64,000 bases of DNA from Candidatus Gastranaerophilales bacterium (GTDB taxonomy: Bacteria > Cyanobacteriota > Vampirovibrionia > Gastranaerophilales > Gastranaerophilaceae), in assembly GCA_944326115.1 (NCBI GenBank), contig CALVCQ010000001.1:1-64000 (forward strand), read 5' to 3'. This document shows positions 16,373-26,046 of this stretch, piece after piece. The position numbers and the translations under genes were made by a program. Below the pieces are notes generated by a model that worked only from the letters and a program-made list of their open reading frames with translations, had not been told where the DNA came from and did not search any database. Position 1 is the stretch's first letter; every line of letters starts with the position of its first letter.

Positions 16373-16401
16373 TTGACTAAATATAATAAATTTGTTATTA
16401 T
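16373..16401 (+). promoter_or_regulatory. Promoter of the McrB-like gene
   Basis: TTGACT (16373-16378) and TATTAT (16396-16401) are separated by 17 bases. Transcription should start near 16408, so the open frame upstream of 16479 is not part of the protein. Confidence 0.6.
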
Positions 16402-16478
16402 TTGCGCAAAACAGTGTTCTATTTAATTTATTCGATTTAAAAAAATCACGACCACAAAGAGATAAAGGAGTTGAAAAG

Positions 16479-17864
16479 ATGTTAAATATCCCCAAAAATC
16501 AAATTTTTTACGGACCGTCAGGCTGCAGCAAAAGTTTTAATCTTATTTTGGAAGCACTAAAAATTACTGGCTCCCCGCTGATTAGTCCGGATAAAAATCA
16601 TATATATACGGAAGAAGAATGCACAAAATTAATTGACGAATTCGATAATAAAAAAAGAACGGGAGAAATTGAATTAATAAGCTTTCATGACTCATATTCT
16701 TATATTGATTTTATCGAAGGCAGCAAACTTGATATAAAAGACGGCAGAAATTTATCCGGATATGAAATGAATTTTACAGATCGCTGCGGCTGTTTTAAAA
16801 AGATAGCGCAAAGAGCTTTATTTGAATGTCTTGATATTCCTCTGATAAAGAAATTACAGATTTTTTCTTTTACAAAACTTATGGAATATTTTAGGGAACT
16901 TTATCCTATGGGCTCGGTGTTCAGTATTGAATCATCGACATTTGAGCTTGTACGTTATACAAACAAATCAATAGTAATAAAGCCAAATTCACAGTCGGCA
17001 ATGCTGGAACTTTTATATGAACCTTTTGAAAAAATGCTTGAAAAGAGTATTCAAAGAGATATTCAAGGTCATGAACTTAAAGAAATTCTTGAGCCGTACA
17101 AAGGTTCTATAGCTTATTATAATGCAATATTTTTAAAATTAATTGATATATATGAAGCTGCCAAGATAAAACTTATTGAAGAATTTTACCGTGGCTCGTA
17201 CGAACTCAAAAAAGAAAACATGAAACCTTTTGTTTTAATAATAGAAGAAATCGACAATACAAATATCTCAAAAGTATTTGGAGAACTCATATCCCTGCTT
17301 GATGAAGACAAAAGAGGTCAGAGAATAGTCAGATTACCATATTCTCAGGAAAGATTTATGGTTCCTGAAAATTTATACATAATTGGTACAATAACAACAC
17401 CAAGCTATTTGACAGACTACAAAAACTGGAATATTTTATTAAGAAAATTCTCGTTTGTGAAACATTCGCCAAACCCTGCAATGGTTGCAGATTTTGGATG
17501 TAATTTCAGTGAAAAGTTCAAAATTTTAAACGAAAGAATTTCGCTTGTACTTGGTGAAGAATATCAAATCGGACATGGATTTTTCTTAAAAACCAAATAT
17601 GAAAATGCAGACATTAACAAATTAAAAGAACTCTGGTACAGATATGTATATCCGAGATTAAGGCTGTATCTTAACAAAGATTTTGACAGAATGCAGGCTA
17701 TACTTGGTGCGGCTAAAGATGACGGTTCTTCTTTTATAAAAACAAGAAACTGTATAAAATTACCGAATAATTACCAGCTTGATGAATCGAAAAAATTTAT
17801 ATATGCTGATCAAAATGCAGATAATTTTGATTTTCAACAGGCTTTAGAATATGCTTTCAGCTAA
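16479..17864 (+). CDS. Orphan McrB-like AAA+ NTPase with altered motifs
   Basis: I place the start at ATG 16479 behind AAAGGAG (16464-16470), giving 461 residues. The layout follows the McrB GTPase domain: Walker A GPSGCSKS (12-19), ISFHDSYSYIDFIEG (67-81; McrB proteins have FHQSYSYEDFIEG), Walker B LIIEEID (253-259), NISKVFGELISLLDEDKRG (262-280), LYIIGTITT (299-307) and IGHGFF (364-369). Three changes stand out: the McrB NRGN signature reads DNTN, the sensor strand reads IGTITT rather than IGTMNT, and the arginine-finger stretch (LLRKFSF) has one Arg. No DNA-binding N-terminal domain and no mcrC are adjacent, so it is unlikely to be a standard restriction enzyme. It has its own promoter and terminator. 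Confidence 0.8.
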   Translation: MLNIPKNQIFYGPSGCSKSFNLILEALKITGSPLISPDKNHIYTEEECTKLIDEFDNKKRTGEIELISFHDSYSYIDFIEGSKLDIKDGRNLSGYEMNFTDRCGCFKKIAQRALFECLDIPLIKKLQIFSFTKLMEYFRELYPMGSVFSIESSTFELVRYTNKSIVIKPNSQSAMLELLYEPFEKMLEKSIQRDIQGHELKEILEPYKGSIAYYNAIFLKLIDIYEAAKIKLIEEFYRGSYELKKENMKPFVLIIEEIDNTNISKVFGELISLLDEDKRGQRIVRLPYSQERFMVPENLYIIGTITTPSYLTDYKNWNILLRKFSFVKHSPNPAMVADFGCNFSEKFKILNERISLVLGEEYQIGHGFFLKTKYENADINKLKELWYRYVYPRLRLYLNKDFDRMQAILGAAKDDGSSFIKTRNCIKLPNNYQLDESKKFIYADQNADNFDFQQALEYAFS

Positions 17865-20516: not shown

Positions 20517-20933
20517 TCAGGTAATAATCTGGACATAGATATGGCGTGATCTTGGTTTATTGTCAAAATCTATAAGCACAATCTGCTGCCATGTTCCTAA
20601 AAGTAAGGCTCCGTCTATTAACGGAACGGATACGGAACTGCCTAAAAGAGCAGCTCTGACATGCGCATAACCGTTGCCGTCATGCCATGTATCGTCATGA
20701 TGATAGCTTTTGTCCATAGGTGCAATATCGTCTAGAATATCGGGCAAGTCCTTAACCAGTCCCGGTTCATATTCTATAGTTGTAATCGATGCTGTGCTTC
20801 CCGGAAGCGCAACTATAACGCATCCGTTTTTCAGATTATGCTGATATACTGCGGATTTTACCTTTTGTGTGATATCAATAATATCCGTAAATCCACGGGT
20901 ATTTATTGTAAAATTTTCCGTATAAACAGTCAT
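20517..20933 (-). CDS. yjbQ: YjbQ family protein (UPF0047)
   Basis: The 138-residue length and sequence match the YjbQ family, small trimeric proteins; some members show weak thiamin-phosphate synthase activity, but the physiological role is unsettled. Family features visible are TRGFTDIIDITQKV, the SYHHDDTWHDGNGYAHVRA segment with several histidines at the proposed active site, and GTWQQIVLIDFDNKPRSRHI near the end. Its ATG overlaps the stop of the upstream secreted-protein gene by one base (TAATG), so the two are translationally coupled although their functions are not obviously related. Confidence 0.9.
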   Translation of the reverse strand: MTVYTENFTINTRGFTDIIDITQKVKSAVYQHNLKNGCVIVALPGSTASITTIEYEPGLVKDLPDILDDIAPMDKSYHHDDTWHDGNGYAHVRAALLGSSVSVPLIDGALLLGTWQQIVLIDFDNKPRSRHIYVQIIT

Positions 20934-21988
20934 TACCTGGCGTCTCCTGTATATTTATATAAATCTATATCTCTTACTCTCATTGCAAAATAAGGTTTGG
21001 ATTGATTTTTTTCTTTTATAAATATTATAAAAGTATTATTAAAGAAGAAATTTCTCCCTTTTTGTTTTACAGCAACAGGCATAGACATTACCTTTATATC
21101 CATGATTGCTTCGCTTTTTAATTTTACGCCGGTATTGTTCATATTAAAATCAGCAGTCTGCAAAGCCTGAGAAATATAAAGTTTGTCTGTATGAAGAATT
21201 TCTTTGTTGCACAATTCCGGATAGCCTGTTTTTGCTTTCAGGCTCATAAACGGGACTTTTAGTTTATCACCTGCTGCAAATTTTTTATTTCCTTTATATT
21301 TTTGTGATTTTATGTTCAGGTCATTATATAAATCTTCAAAATTAAAGTTCAGGTTTGTTCTGTATAAAATAACCTCATCTTTATCTGATTTCAACGAAAC
21401 TGCATAATCAAACCGGTTGTTGTAAAAAAGTACATCTACACCGTTATAAAGGTTTTGCGGGCTGTTTTTGTCAATACCGAAGTACTGCACTTTTTGTTTG
21501 CTTCTTGCAAATTTTTCAACACCGAGGATATCAAATCTTGTTGTGAATTTAAAATCTTTTAGAAGCATAGAATAAATAAGATATGCATTTGTCGGGTCAT
21601 TCCAGTTTACATTGTTTAAAAGTTCGCTTTTTTCTTTGAATTTGTTCCATATTGCATCTTCAATTTGTTTTTTTAAGGCATTATTTGTTCTGCCGTAAGC
21701 AACGTAATAAGAATCTTGCGACAGCATATTCTTTTTAAATTCCTGACGATTTAATATTTTTACATTCTGAGGAGTTCCGCCGTTGAACATAATATAGCCT
21801 TTTACAATATTGTTCATAAACTCATTCCAGGCGAGCTGAAATGTTGCAACCCACAGTCTGTCCTGTTGTTTAAATTCCGATGAAAAAGCCGGCAGCATTT
21901 CAGGTGCGGTGTTTTTGTTTTTTGCGAGTGCAATACCGCCTGTGAGAATAAAAGCCGTAAGTATAAATGTTAGAAATATTTTTTTCAT
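20933..21988 (-). CDS. Secreted serpin-like hypothetical protein
   Basis: A 351-residue protein with a signal peptide (MKKIFLTFILTAFILTGGIA, cleavage near LAKN). The N-terminal region has RLWVATFQLAWNEFMNNIVKG (residues 44-64), the middle has VDVLFYNNRFDYAVSLK (184-200), and the C-terminal part reads NMNNTGVKLKSEAI (282-295) followed by FNNTFIIFIKEK (316-327) and PYFAMRV. The last two stretches resemble the serpin hinge (N-E-x-G-x-x-A) and the conserved C-terminal strand ending in a MGRV-like motif. I also recall similar proteins from Clostridia. True inhibitor function is unproven, since the hinge has Lys and Ser-Glu where small residues are expected. Confidence 0.65.
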   Translation of the reverse strand: MKKIFLTFILTAFILTGGIALAKNKNTAPEMLPAFSSEFKQQDRLWVATFQLAWNEFMNNIVKGYIMFNGGTPQNVKILNRQEFKKNMLSQDSYYVAYGRTNNALKKQIEDAIWNKFKEKSELLNNVNWNDPTNAYLIYSMLLKDFKFTTRFDILGVEKFARSKQKVQYFGIDKNSPQNLYNGVDVLFYNNRFDYAVSLKSDKDEVILYRTNLNFNFEDLYNDLNIKSQKYKGNKKFAAGDKLKVPFMSLKAKTGYPELCNKEILHTDKLYISQALQTADFNMNNTGVKLKSEAIMDIKVMSMPVAVKQKGRNFFFNNTFIIFIKEKNQSKPYFAMRVRDIDLYKYTGDAR

Positions 21989-22162: not shown

Positions 22163-23143
22163 ATGTTTGGTTGTGTAAAAAGTCTTTATTCTTTAGGAAG
22201 AACGATTTATTCGTCAAGAACAGCCGGTGCATCTGCCGGTACAATGTTTGATGCTTTTGTTCATACAATGAGCCGTCCCCATATTGCAAGGCAGTCGGCA
22301 AGAAAAATTGTTGCACAGACGCAAGAAGCAGCTACTCAACTGGAGAAAACAGCGGATGAAATATTAAGAAAATCCGGAGTTGATGCAGAGGTTTCCTGCA
22401 GGGTAAAAAGTGTAGATTCAACAGCAGCAAAACAGATAAGATATATGCAGGGGTTTGATACGTACGAAAATCAGCGAAGCAAAGTTCTTGATATTATATC
22501 AGGCAGAGGTATGACAGAATTAATCGGAGATTCATACGGCATAAGATACACTCTCAAATCAGGCAGTTTTGATGATTTATTTAACGCTATTGCTGACAGA
22601 ACAAGAACTCATTCCGATTTCTTTGTAAAAAGTATTGAAGATTACCATGGCTGTAATATAACACCCTATGCAAACAAAAATATTCTTGATAATTATGCAA
22701 GCCTTGTTTATAAAGATACAAAAGGGAATATAAAACAAACAATTGCAACCAGTGCCGAAAAAAAATCGGGCTATACTCGTGATAATATTAACGCAGCTAT
22801 AAACGGTACAAATACAGAAATACAGGTTGGCGGTAAATTCACAAATCCGTGGGGTGATGTTGAACATTATTTATATGATATAAGACAGGGCAAACCTCTT
22901 GATTTGTCAAAATTAACACCTGAACAAAAAGAAATTGCACTGAAACTTCAAAGGGAATATAAAAAATTACTGCAAAACAAAAAAGCAAATGACTATTTCA
23001 CTACAAACTATTTAAATAAAATCTGGGAATATTTAAGAAATTCCGAGCTTAAAGGACTTGATGCACCGGAACTTCCTCCGTTCCCTGCAGGTTACAGTGA
23101 TGTATTGAGGGCGGAAAATATCATGAAACTTGCGCATTCTTAG
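22163..23143 (+). CDS. Divergent RelA/SpoT-like nucleotidyltransferase-fold protein
   Basis: A 326-residue protein. Residues 75-240 follow the order of the alarmone synthetase fold: RVKSVDSTAAKQ (80-91; RSH proteins have R-x-K-S-xx-S), IGDSYGIRYT (121-130; D-xx-G-I-R), an FVKSIEDYHG stretch (154-163), SGYTRDNINAAI (202-213; G-Y-x-x-x-H in true enzymes, here with Asn), TEIQVGG (218-224; E-I/V-Q-I) and WGDVEHYLYD (230-239). There is no HD hydrolase, TGS or ACT domain. A 70-residue N-terminal extension and a helical tail (245-326) flank the core. It could be a small alarmone synthetase or a toxin of that fold. It stands alone, with no visible antitoxin gene beside it. Confidence 0.65.
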   Translation: MFGCVKSLYSLGRTIYSSRTAGASAGTMFDAFVHTMSRPHIARQSARKIVAQTQEAATQLEKTADEILRKSGVDAEVSCRVKSVDSTAAKQIRYMQGFDTYENQRSKVLDIISGRGMTELIGDSYGIRYTLKSGSFDDLFNAIADRTRTHSDFFVKSIEDYHGCNITPYANKNILDNYASLVYKDTKGNIKQTIATSAEKKSGYTRDNINAAINGTNTEIQVGGKFTNPWGDVEHYLYDIRQGKPLDLSKLTPEQKEIALKLQREYKKLLQNKKANDYFTTNYLNKIWEYLRNSELKGLDAPELPPFPAGYSDVLRAENIMKLAHS

Positions 23144-23160
23144 AATGTTTTGTCATAAAC

Positions 23161-23223
23161 TGTCCGGGAAAATTCGTGATAAAACTCTGCCAAACAAAAC
23201 AATCCTGTGAATTGTTTTGTGAG
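23161..23223 (+). repeat. Variable-hairpin intergenic repeat, copy 2
   Basis: The head TGTCCGGGAAAATTCGTGAT continues as AAAACTCTGCC, then a perfect hairpin ACAAAACAAT/ATTGTTTTGT and GAG. It lies between the convergent RelA/SpoT-like gene and secA and may act as a transcript end for either. Confidence 0.7.
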
Positions 23224-23244
23224 AAAGAAACAGCTTAATTTGCT

Positions 23245-26046
23245 TTACTTATTTTTTCCGCAGCAGTTTTTATATTTTTTCCCGCTTCCGCAAGGGCACG
23301 GGTCGTTTCTGCCGATTTTGTCGACTCTGTGTACTGGAGAATGAACAGTTTCTTCCTCATATTCTGACGGCGCCTTAAATTCCTGTGCTGCCTGAGACAG
23401 CTGTGTCTGTATCACATCGTCGTCTCTTCTGTTTACAATCTGTACACCAAAACGGGTCCTGAACAGGTATTTAACAGTTTCTGACTGGATTTCATACATC
23501 ATATTGTTAAACAGGTCATAAGCTTCTCTTTTGTATTCAATAAGCGGGTCTTTTTGCCCGTAAGCTCTGAGTCCTATACCGTCACGGAGCATATCGATAT
23601 TGTGCAGGTGGTCAATCCATTTGTTGTCTACAACCCTTAACAAAATATCTTTTTCGATATTTCTCATAACATTTGTATGAGAGAACGGTTCTTCGGGAGT
23701 ATAACCGGTTTCATACTGTTCCTGAATACTGTTATAAAAGCTTATTGTCTCTTCTTCGTGTTCTCTGTATGCATCTATTGCAAGTTTTTTGAACTTTTCA
23801 AAAATAGATTCATAGCTCAAGCCTTGAATATCATTGACTTCAAGATAAGATAACTGCGGCACAAGGGAATGTACCTCTTTTATCATACCCTGCAAGTCCT
23901 CGTAGATGTATTCTTGAGGATTCTGCCCCGGAGAAATGTAGCTTTTTATGATTCTGTCCATTTCTCTTTCAATCATGTAATAAATATCAGCGGTTAAATC
24001 TTCGCCTTTTAACACTCTGCGTCTCTGGCTGTAGAATTTTTCTCTTTGAATATTCATTACATCATCGTATTCAAGTACGCTTTTTCTTATGTCAAAGTGA
24101 TATGTCTCAACTTTTCTCTGCGAAGCCTGAATCTGTCTTGTGATAAGTTTTGATTCAATTGCCATATCCTCTTCAACATTGAGGGTGTTCATAAGATTGA
24201 TAATATGCTGCCCGCCGAAAATCCTCATCAAATCGTCTTCTAATGATAAGAAAAATCTTGTTGAGCCGGGGTCGCCCTGTCTTGCTGCACGCCCTCTCAG
24301 CTGGTTGTCGATACGGCGTGATTCGTGTCTTTCAGTACCTATTACGTGTAAACCGCCTGCCTGAACTACTTTTTCGTGTTCTGCTTCTGTTATGGCTTTA
24401 GCTTCTTTTAAAGCAGCCTCTTTTTGTGCTTCATAATCCGGACTGTCCGGTGTAATACCTTTGTTATCAAGCATATCCTTTGCAAGATATTCTGCGTTAC
24501 CGCCTAAAAGAATGTCGGTGCCTCGTCCTGCCATATTTGTTGCAATAGTCACAGCTCCCCATCTGCCTGCCTGTGCAATGATATATGCTTCTTTTTCGTG
24601 GTGTTTTGCGTTTAATACGTTATGTTTTATGCCTCGTTTTTTCAATAAATCAGACAGATACTCGGATTTATCGATACTGATTGTACCGACAAGCACGGGT
24701 CTGCCTTTTTCATGCATCTTTATAATTTCGTCCACAACCGCAAGGTATTTTTGTTTTTGCGATTTATAAACAACATCCGGCAGGTTGATTCTGATATCCG
24801 GCTTGTTTGTAGGAATTGTTGTTACTTCAAGATTGTAAATCTTGCCGAATTCAGCTTCTTCTGTCATTGCAGTACCTGTCATACCGGCAAGTTTGGGATA
24901 CAGTCTGAACAGATTCTGGAAGGTAATGCTTGCAAGAGTCTGTGTTTCATCCTGAATTTGAACGCCTTCTTTAGCTTCAACAGCCTGATGAAGTCCGTCT
25001 GACCAGCGGCGTCCTTCCATTAAACGACCTGTAAATTCATCAACGATTATGACTTCGCCGTTTTTAATTACATAGTCGGTATCTTTTTGATACAATTCTT
25101 TTGCCTTAAGGGCTTGAAACAGATGATGAGCATACTGGTTGTGCACATCAAACAAATCTTCTATACCGAGAAGCTTTTCTGCATGGTCTATGCCTTCTTC
25201 TGATAAAATAACATTTTTGTTCTTTTCATCTACTTCATAATCCACATTCTTTTGTAATTGCGGAGCAACTTTTGCCATGGTCTGATAAAGCTGAGCCGAC
25301 TGCTCGAGACGTCCTGAAATAATCAACGGTGTTCTTGCCTCGTCAATTAAAATAGAGTCGACTTCATCGATAATTGCATAGTTGTAAGGACGCTGAACAA
25401 GCATGTCCAAACTGCCTGCCATGTTGTCTCTTAAGTAGTCAAAACCGAATTCGTTATTTGTTCCGTAGGTGATATCGCAGGCATAGGCAGCTTTTTTACG
25501 TTCAAAATCATCATAGCCCCGTTCAGAATTAGCAAGAATAACGCCTACACTGAGACCGAGGAATTTATAAATTTTGCCCATCCACTCGCTGTCACGCTTT
25601 GCAAGGTAATCGTTAACAGTAATTACATGAACACCTTTGCCGGTCAGTGCATTTAAGTATGCCGGCAGAGTAGCCACAAGAGTTTTACCTTCACCTGTTC
25701 TCATTTCTGCAATATGTCCGTTATGCAAGAATATACCGCCTATAAGCTGTACATCAAAGTGGCGCATGTTAAGAACTCTTTTGCCGGCTTCTCTTACAAC
25801 GGCAAAGGCTTCCGGAAGTATTTCATCGAGTGCTTTTTTTTCTAAAGCTCTGTCTTTTTTAGTATCTGATGAAGTTTCTCTGTTTCTTAAGTGTTCTTTA
25901 AATTCTTCTGTCTTAGCACGCAATTGCTCATCAGTAAGCTTTTCCATTTCTGGTTCAAGCTTGTTTATATGTTCGACAATGGGCATCATTTTTTTTACTT
26001 TATTTTCGTTCGGATCACCCAGTAGTTTGAATAATAAATCTAACAT
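23245..26046 (-). CDS. secA: Preprotein translocase ATPase SecA
   Basis: SecA drives protein export through SecYEG. The 933-residue protein is full length. Walker A is MRTGEGKT (115-122), the DEAD-like box is DEVD (227-230), and the second motor domain has the [15 protein letters not shown] and [20 protein letters not shown] motifs. The C terminus keeps the zinc motif with Cys917, Cys919, Cys928 and Cys929, which binds SecB or lipids in other species. GAGG lies 13 bases before the ATG, a longer distance than usual. The upstream gap of nearly 800 bases is unusually long, and related repeats lie on both sides. Confidence 0.97.

What the first reader, a model, noticed from the sequence alone, without database searches (positions are those of the whole stretch)
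22163..23143. Divergent RelA/SpoT-fold protein without hydrolase or antitoxin neighbour
Motif order follows the alarmone synthetase fold (R-x-K-S, D-xx-G-I-R, E-I-Q, W-xx-x-E-H), but the G-Y-x-x-x-H histidine is Asn, and the core is framed by a 70-residue N-terminal extension and a helical tail. It could make an unusual nucleotide signal, modify RNA like toxic small alarmone synthetases, or be inactive.
Basis: partly seen in the sequence, partly recalled or inferred. Interest (0 to 1): 0.6.

Follow-up and report, generated by a model that had tools for sequence, protein, structure and literature searches.

The report
Alarmone-synthetase-fold protein with paired partner
The gene encodes an apparently working relative of the enzymes that make bacterial alarm nucleotides, and in gut Gastranaerophilales it nearly always sits beside a small partner gene, as toxin and antidote genes do; in this genome the two have been moved about 82,000 bases apart.

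Summary
Window 22163-23143 (+) is a 326-aa ORF with an RSH/SYNTH (alarmone synthetase) fold. It gets no Pfam or PDB hit alone, but its order-wide family does (PDB RelP E 1.9e-6; PF04607 in 28 of 39 members), and the AlphaFold2 model's top 35 Foldseek PDB hits are all RSH enzymes (SAS, CapRel, FaRel2, Rel, SpoT). Catalytic and ATP-site residues are invariant or nearly so and dN/dS is about 0.1, so inactivity is unlikely. Asn at this motif is known in (p)ppApp synthetases (Apk2, and by inference Apk1). The acceptor loop also carries a 24-54-residue insertion.

'No antitoxin neighbour' is local. In the other 28 orthologues a 124-176-aa partner gene lies directly downstream. Partner and enzyme co-occur in 20 of 20 genomes, against 0 of 79 without the enzyme. 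In this genome the partner is intact 82 kb away on the same contig. Other RSH proteins of the order, including 1,600-2,700-aa giants, mostly have distant homologues of the partner next to them.

Best reading: an adenosine- or RNA-directed 3'-pyrophosphokinase restrained by its partner (toxSAS-like). Toxicity, product and neutralisation are inferred.

The parts
22163..23143 (+). ORF P0001, 326 aa, RSH/SYNTH-fold protein (predicted 3'-pyrophosphokinase)
22163..22240 (+). Residues 1-26, disordered leader with the conserved G[KR].[VI]Y[ST][ST] motif seen in most orthologues
   Evidence: pLDDT about 40
22241..22378 (+). Residues 27-72, N-terminal helices before the SYNTH core (FDAF...; helices 28-36, 39-55, 57-71)
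22400..22432 (+). Residues 80-90, ATP (pyrophosphate donor) site R-x-K-x-x-x-S-x-x-x-K; R80 and K82 invariant in 39 sequences
22529..22546 (+). Residues 123-128, D-S-Y-G-I-R; D123 is the predicted Mg2+ aspartate, invariant with G126 and R128
22643..22774 (+). Residues 161-204, G-loop (acceptor site) with an insertion: 43 residues from Y161 to Y204 (33-63 in the family) against 9-10 in canonical Rel; Y169 invariant
   Evidence: against A6
22769..22786 (+). Residues 203-208, GYTRDN, the syn3 motif; Asn (orthologues) or Gln (18 of 19 paralogues) in place of the RSH His
22817..22825 (+). Residues 219-221, E-I-Q; E219 is the predicted catalytic Glu (37 Glu, 2 Asp of 39)
22850..22867 (+). Residues 230-235, W-G-D-V-E-H; H235 invariant
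22919..23131 (+). Residues 253-323, C-terminal helical tail
23144..23247 (.). Breakpoint interval. In the other 28 orthologues the partner gene starts here; in this genome secA (convergent) follows, and the partner lies outside the window at contig C1:104951-105325 (+)
20517..21988 (-). Conserved upstream flank (signal-peptide protein of 351 aa and a UPF0047 protein), syntenic with many orthologues; marks the ancestral locus, not part of the module

Best explanation
P0001 is an active RSH-fold 3'-pyrophosphokinase whose acceptor pocket has been remodelled (His to Asn in GYxxxH, long G-loop insertion), so that it most likely transfers pyrophosphate from ATP to an adenosine acceptor (ATP/ADP, or a tRNA 3'-CCA end) rather than making (p)ppGpp. 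It works as one half of a two-gene module with a small basic alpha/beta protein that binds the SYNTH domain and keeps it off, in the manner of toxin-antitoxin or effector-immunity toxSAS pairs. In this genome a rearrangement separated the two genes by 82 kb, so the partner must act in trans. Shown here: fold, conservation of catalytic residues, purifying selection, strict gene pairing and the split. Inferred: activity, acceptor, neutralisation.
For: Fold and family: PDB profile hits are RSH enzymes; PF04607 in 28 of 39 members; Foldseek top hits SAS1, RelP, CapRel, exported SAS, SpoT, Rel, FaRel2. Catalytic residues invariant or nearly so. dN/dS 0.09-0.18 for the enzyme and 0.08-0.18 for the partner, including the split pair. 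Pairing: the partner lies directly downstream on the same strand in all 19 other orthologues of the first set and in 9 held-out orthologues of another genus. Partner hits at E<1e-30 occur in exactly the 20 of 99 genomes that have the enzyme, Fisher p 2e-21. Distant homologues of the partner lie next to most paralogues, including giants with the SYNTH domain in mid-protein (hhalign E 4e-8 and 9e-8; control comparisons 0.29 and 0.35). Asn at syn3 characterises Apk2 (p)ppApp synthetase (PMC12226406); (p)ppApp-type toxSAS are neutralised by proteins that occlude the acceptor site (PMC11782079).
Against: No assay exists. The pair sits at a conserved chromosomal locus in many genomes of the genus, has no homologue in the phage, plasmid or viral collections searched, and tolerates an 82-kb split, all less typical of a mobile toxin-antitoxin module. 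The partner has no sequence or fold match to a known antitoxin. Syn2 is canonical (GIR), not the Apk2 form. In the Apk2 work, swapping the syn motifs did not convert specificity, so Asn alone does not fix the acceptor.
Confidence: 0.55

Rival explanations
1. A vertically inherited, non-toxic regulatory synthetase: P0001 makes an alarmone (perhaps (p)ppGpp or a variant) and the small protein is a sensor or activating subunit that switches it on, rather than an antitoxin.
For: Conserved chromosomal location with the same flanking genes in many genomes of the genus, no phage or plasmid copies found, both genes under steady purifying selection and retained after being separated. A bifunctional-length Rel is present in the same genome and could clear the product.
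Against: Five of 23 genomes of the same genus lack both genes together. The acceptor loop and syn3 motif differ from (p)ppGpp synthetases. The same pairing occurs with giant multidomain proteins, which fits effector and immunity better than metabolism.
Confidence: 0.27
2. An exported effector with its chaperone: P0001 is delivered out of the cell and the downstream protein is a secretion chaperone rather than an inhibitor of the SYNTH domain.
For: Effector-like giants in the order carry the same domain with HD, GNAT or calpain domains. Exported alarmone synthetases are known (PMC12691689). Disordered N-terminal leader and a short hydrophobic N-terminal motif shared with some lineage proteins.
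Against: No signal peptide or known secretion domain found. The partner is basic (median pI 9.35), unlike classical acidic type III chaperones (general knowledge). The partner follows the SYNTH domain whether that is C-terminal or in the middle of the protein.
Confidence: 0.13
3. A catalytically dead pseudoenzyme kept as a binding or scaffold protein.
For: GYxxxH His is lost; sequence is too diverged for Pfam.
Against: All other catalytic and ATP-site residues are invariant or nearly so in 39 sequences. Asn at this position is found in active (p)ppApp synthetases (PMC12226406, PMC12691689).
Confidence: 0.05

Closest known systems
Apk2 (MuF-linked (p)ppApp synthetase toxin of temperate phages) with IapK and Aph1
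   Same: SYNTH domain with Asn in place of His at syn3; followed by a small downstream gene
   Different: P0001 has no MuF domain, canonical syn2 (GIR), a long G-loop insertion and no adjacent hydrolase gene; no similarity of the partner to IapK was found (IapK itself was not compared directly)
Apk1/Tas1-Tis1 (type VI effector and immunity) and SaEAS (exported synthetase)
   Same: Same fold (8vx3 is a Foldseek hit); active-site Asn reported for both enzymes
   Different: No PAAR domain or Sec signal; partner not matched to any solved structure by sequence or fold
FaRel2-ATfaRel2 and CapRel (tRNA-pyrophosphorylating toxSAS)
   Same: Fold hits, two-gene toxin-antitoxin logic, N-terminal helices before the core
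   Different: Partner is alpha-beta4-alpha-alpha, with no match to these proteins; tRNA-binding residues not comparable
RelP/RelQ small alarmone synthetases
   Same: Best sequence-profile match (6fgk, 6ewz), same core motifs
   Different: GYxxxN not GYxxxH, acceptor-loop insertion, obligate partner gene

Membership tests
RSH/SYNTH superfamily (PF04607-like) | Significant profile match to RSH synthetases | tested here: met
   Family profile hits RelP E 1.9e-6; 28 of 39 members match PF04607; P0001 alone does not
RSH/SYNTH superfamily (PF04607-like) | SYNTH fold | tested here: met
   AlphaFold2 model, pLDDT 89.5; Foldseek top hits all RSH, E down to 1.3e-4, although TM-scores are low (0.2-0.56)
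RSH/SYNTH superfamily (PF04607-like) | Catalytic Asp and Glu and ATP-site Arg/Lys | tested here: met
   D123, R80, K82 and R128 in 39 of 39; E219 Glu 37, Asp 2
Canonical (p)ppGpp synthetase (Rel, RelP, RelQ) | GYxxxH acceptor motif and short G-loop | tested here: not met
   N208 in P0001; 43 residues between Y161 and Y204 against 9-10
toxSAS toxin-antitoxin or effector-immunity module | Adjacent small cognate gene, co-inherited | tested here: met
   28 of 29 orthologues adjacent; co-occurrence 20/20 against 0/79. In this genome the partner is 82 kb away
toxSAS toxin-antitoxin or effector-immunity module | Partner homologous to a known antitoxin (pZFD, Tis1, SAH, Panacea) | tested here: not met
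   No significant Pfam, PADLOC, NCBIfam, PDB-sequence or Foldseek match
toxSAS toxin-antitoxin or effector-immunity module | Toxicity and neutralisation by the partner | not testable with these tools
   Needs expression assays
Apk (p)ppApp synthetases | Asn at syn3 (GxN for SxH) | tested here: met
   GYTRDN; Asn in 20 of 20 orthologues; signature from PMC12226406
Apk (p)ppApp synthetases | Apk2-type syn2 and syn4 (RYT, YH) and a MuF or PAAR N-terminus | tested here: not met
   Syn2 is GIR in RSH register, syn4 is QVGG, no delivery domain found
Apk (p)ppApp synthetases | Makes (p)ppApp | not testable with these tools
   Needs nucleotide assay

The most novel reading that the evidence does not exclude
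Gastranaerophilales carry an order-wide expansion of SYNTH-domain proteins (stand-alone of 320-550 aa, and giants of 1,600-3,300 aa with HD, GNAT or protease domains) controlled by a new superfamily of small partner proteins, with a remodelled acceptor site that makes a product other than (p)ppGpp. This would be a new alarmone-type toxin or effector system with a previously undescribed antitoxin fold.
Probability: 0.4. Interest if true: 0.72.

Novelty: new variant of a known kind. Interest (0 to 1): 0.55.

Why it matters
It adds a diverged branch of alarmone-synthetase-fold enzymes, spread over an uncultured gut order in which nothing comparable turned up in the literature searched, and links it to a partner protein family with no annotation. 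If the partner neutralises the enzyme, it is a new way to control RSH toxins. The fixed Asn/Gln and the G-loop insertion give a natural test of what sets acceptor choice in RSH enzymes, which the Apk2 motif swaps left open. It also shows that 'no antitoxin next door' can be a local rearrangement rather than the ancestral state.

Tried and rejected
(1) Chance resemblance: rejected by profile and fold. (2) Direct Pfam, PHROG, NCBIfam, PADLOC or PDB hits for P0001 alone: none meaningful. (3) Phage, plasmid or viral origin: no homologue; the A2 alignment was too diverse for a viral pattern search. (4) Partner fold: best Foldseek hits are weak and mixed (E >= 0.025), so no fold is named. (5) Apk2-like syn2 'RYT': P0001 reads GIRYT, but in RSH register the motif is canonical GIR, so this was not counted as evidence. 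(6) The N-terminal motif as a general export signal: enriched (18 of 451 proteins in the first 45 aa against about 1% elsewhere), but mostly because of the partner proteins themselves. (7) The dN/dS value printed for the neighbouring 351-aa gene used a wrong frame and is not used. (9) The two key Apk1/Apk2 papers (PMC10083569, PMC6883173) are not held, so the register of the Apk1/SaEAS Asn with N208 is inferred from spacing and the Apk2 text.

Full report
What is there. Window 22163-23143 (+) is a complete ORF of 326 aa. The reverse strand there has no long frame except a 96-aa mechanical one. The genome is a draft Gastranaerophilales assembly (2.15 Mb in 92 contigs; named relatives). The window neighbours are UppS, a DivIC-like protein, a UPF0047 protein and a 351-aa signal-peptide protein upstream, then secA (convergent), an acyl-CoA synthetase-like protein, an enoyl reductase-like protein and pyruvate kinase downstream; only UPF0047 and DivIC were confirmed with Pfam, the others are named by eye from the translations.

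Is it an RSH fold? P0001 alone has no significant match in Pfam or the PDB. A search of 99 related genomes gave 20 clear orthologues, the window's own included, and many more distant paralogues. The profile of 39 members matches RelP E 1.9e-6, other SAS, Rel and RelA chains. 28 of the 39 match PF04607 at E<=1, and paralogues L060, L064 and L065 exceed its gathering score. The AlphaFold2 model (pLDDT 89.5, pTM 0.83) finds SAS1, RelP, CapRel, an exported SAS, SpoT, Rel and FaRel2 as its first 35 PDB matches, and phage RelA/SpoT and Tas1 proteins among viral models. TM-scores are low (0.2-0.56), so this is a diverged member. The strand and helix order fits the SYNTH topology with extra N-terminal and C-terminal helices.

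Is the active site intact? In 39 sequences R80, K82, D123, G126, R128, Y161, Y169, Y204, T205, Q221 and H235 are invariant; E219 is Glu in 37 and Asp in 2. The His of GYxxxH is Asn in all 20 orthologues, Gln in 18 paralogues and His in one (L065). The loop from the conserved DY Tyr to GY is 33-63 residues long against 9-10 in the canonical Rel proteins of the same order, an insertion in the acceptor-binding G-loop with an invariant Tyr (Y169). dN/dS is 0.09-0.18 between orthologues and 0.11 between the window copy and its closest relative. Published work reports that Apk2 (p)ppApp synthetases have GxN where RSH has SxH at syn3 (PMC12226406), and lists an Asn among the active-site residues of Apk1 and SaEAS (PMC12691689). 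The Asn therefore does not argue for an inactive enzyme; it points to a changed acceptor, possibly adenosine. The same paper could not switch specificity by swapping these motifs, so the acceptor is a guess.

The partner gene. In the other 19 orthologues of the first set a gene of about 124-176 codons lies directly downstream on the same strand. Nine further orthologues from another genus, not used to build the model, all have it too, making 28 of 29; the window is the exception. A profile of the partner hits strongly (E<1e-30) in exactly the 20 genomes that have the enzyme and in none of the other 79, apart from two marginal hits (Fisher p 2e-21). In the window's genome the partner is intact at contig C1:104951-105325 (+), 63% identical to that of the closest relative, followed by the genes that follow it elsewhere. 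The ancestral locus has thus been split exactly between the two genes by about 82 kb that begins with secA. SecA has different 3' neighbours in most relatives, so gene order here is fluid; a misassembly cannot be excluded. Both genes remain under purifying selection (0.11 and 0.14 for the split pair).

The wider family. A search of 286 genomes of the order found the domain at E<=1e-8 in 120, in open frames of about 320 to 3,330 aa. Giant proteins carry the domain at the C-terminus or in the middle, with HD, GNAT or calpain-like domains elsewhere. Next to most of the paralogues examined there is again a small same-strand gene; it was not found for L045, L059, L062 and L065, and L060 is at a contig end. 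These small proteins are distant homologues of each other (hhalign probability about 95%, E 4e-8 and 9e-8; direct A3-A5 comparison not significant; controls 0.2%). The window's genome has a second, intact module (475 aa plus 143 aa) on contig C2 and a 771-residue Rel-type frame on C7. Because the partner follows the SYNTH domain across architectures, it most likely acts on that domain. Its predicted fold is alpha-beta4-alpha-alpha (pLDDT 77), with no convincing match in the PDB or family libraries. It is basic (median pI 9.35).

How it most likely works. ATP binds the conserved donor site; D123 holds Mg2+; E219 activates the 3'-OH of an acceptor bound under Y204 and the enlarged G-loop; pyrophosphate is transferred. 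The partner binds the SYNTH core and restrains it, as IapK/Tis1 (acceptor side) or ATfaRel2 (donor side) do for known toxSAS (PMC11782079). Enzyme chemistry follows from the fold and conserved residues; acceptor identity, toxicity and neutralisation are inference. The main rival, a non-toxic synthetase with a regulatory subunit, is favoured by the conserved chromosomal locus and the lack of mobile copies.

Verdict. Observation confirmed, interpretation partly supported. A member of the RSH superfamily by fold and residues, not a canonical (p)ppGpp synthetase by two tested features, and a toxSAS-like pair by gene arrangement only. No description of this group was found in the papers searched, which is not proof that none exists.

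Noticed in passing
L033-L042 (e.g. L036:3845-10867, L037:335-7774, L040:4634-11773): Giant proteins of 1,600-2,745 aa in Gastranaerophilales combine the SYNTH-like domain with HD, GNAT or calpain-like domains; several share an N-terminal helical stretch (e.g. 'AEGLSG...'). They look like multidomain effectors.
   Followed up: partly
Partner proteins and neighbours in L056, L057, L041, L043: Short N-terminal motif [IV]xF[KGSTQ][AGS] (NISFKA, INFQG, VSFSG) in 18 of 451 proteins within the first 45 aa against about 1% elsewhere; possible sorting signal, but most cases are the partner family itself.
   Followed up: partly
L065:4537-5574 (G071 contig 71): The only family member examined with the canonical His (GYTAGH); by eye its neighbours look like phage head genes, so it may be prophage-borne.
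   Followed up: no
G000 contig C2:45961-46992 and downstream (L162): A second SYNTH-fold protein (475 aa) with an adjacent 143-aa partner in the same genome.
   Followed up: partly
window 23144-23247 and contig C1 104850-104950: Breakpoints of an 82-kb stretch that separates the two genes of the module; rearrangement or misassembly.
   Followed up: partly
window 16392-17864: By eye, an McrB-like AAA+ ATPase frame (GPSGCSKS) starting with TTG; no partner nuclease was looked for.
   Followed up: no
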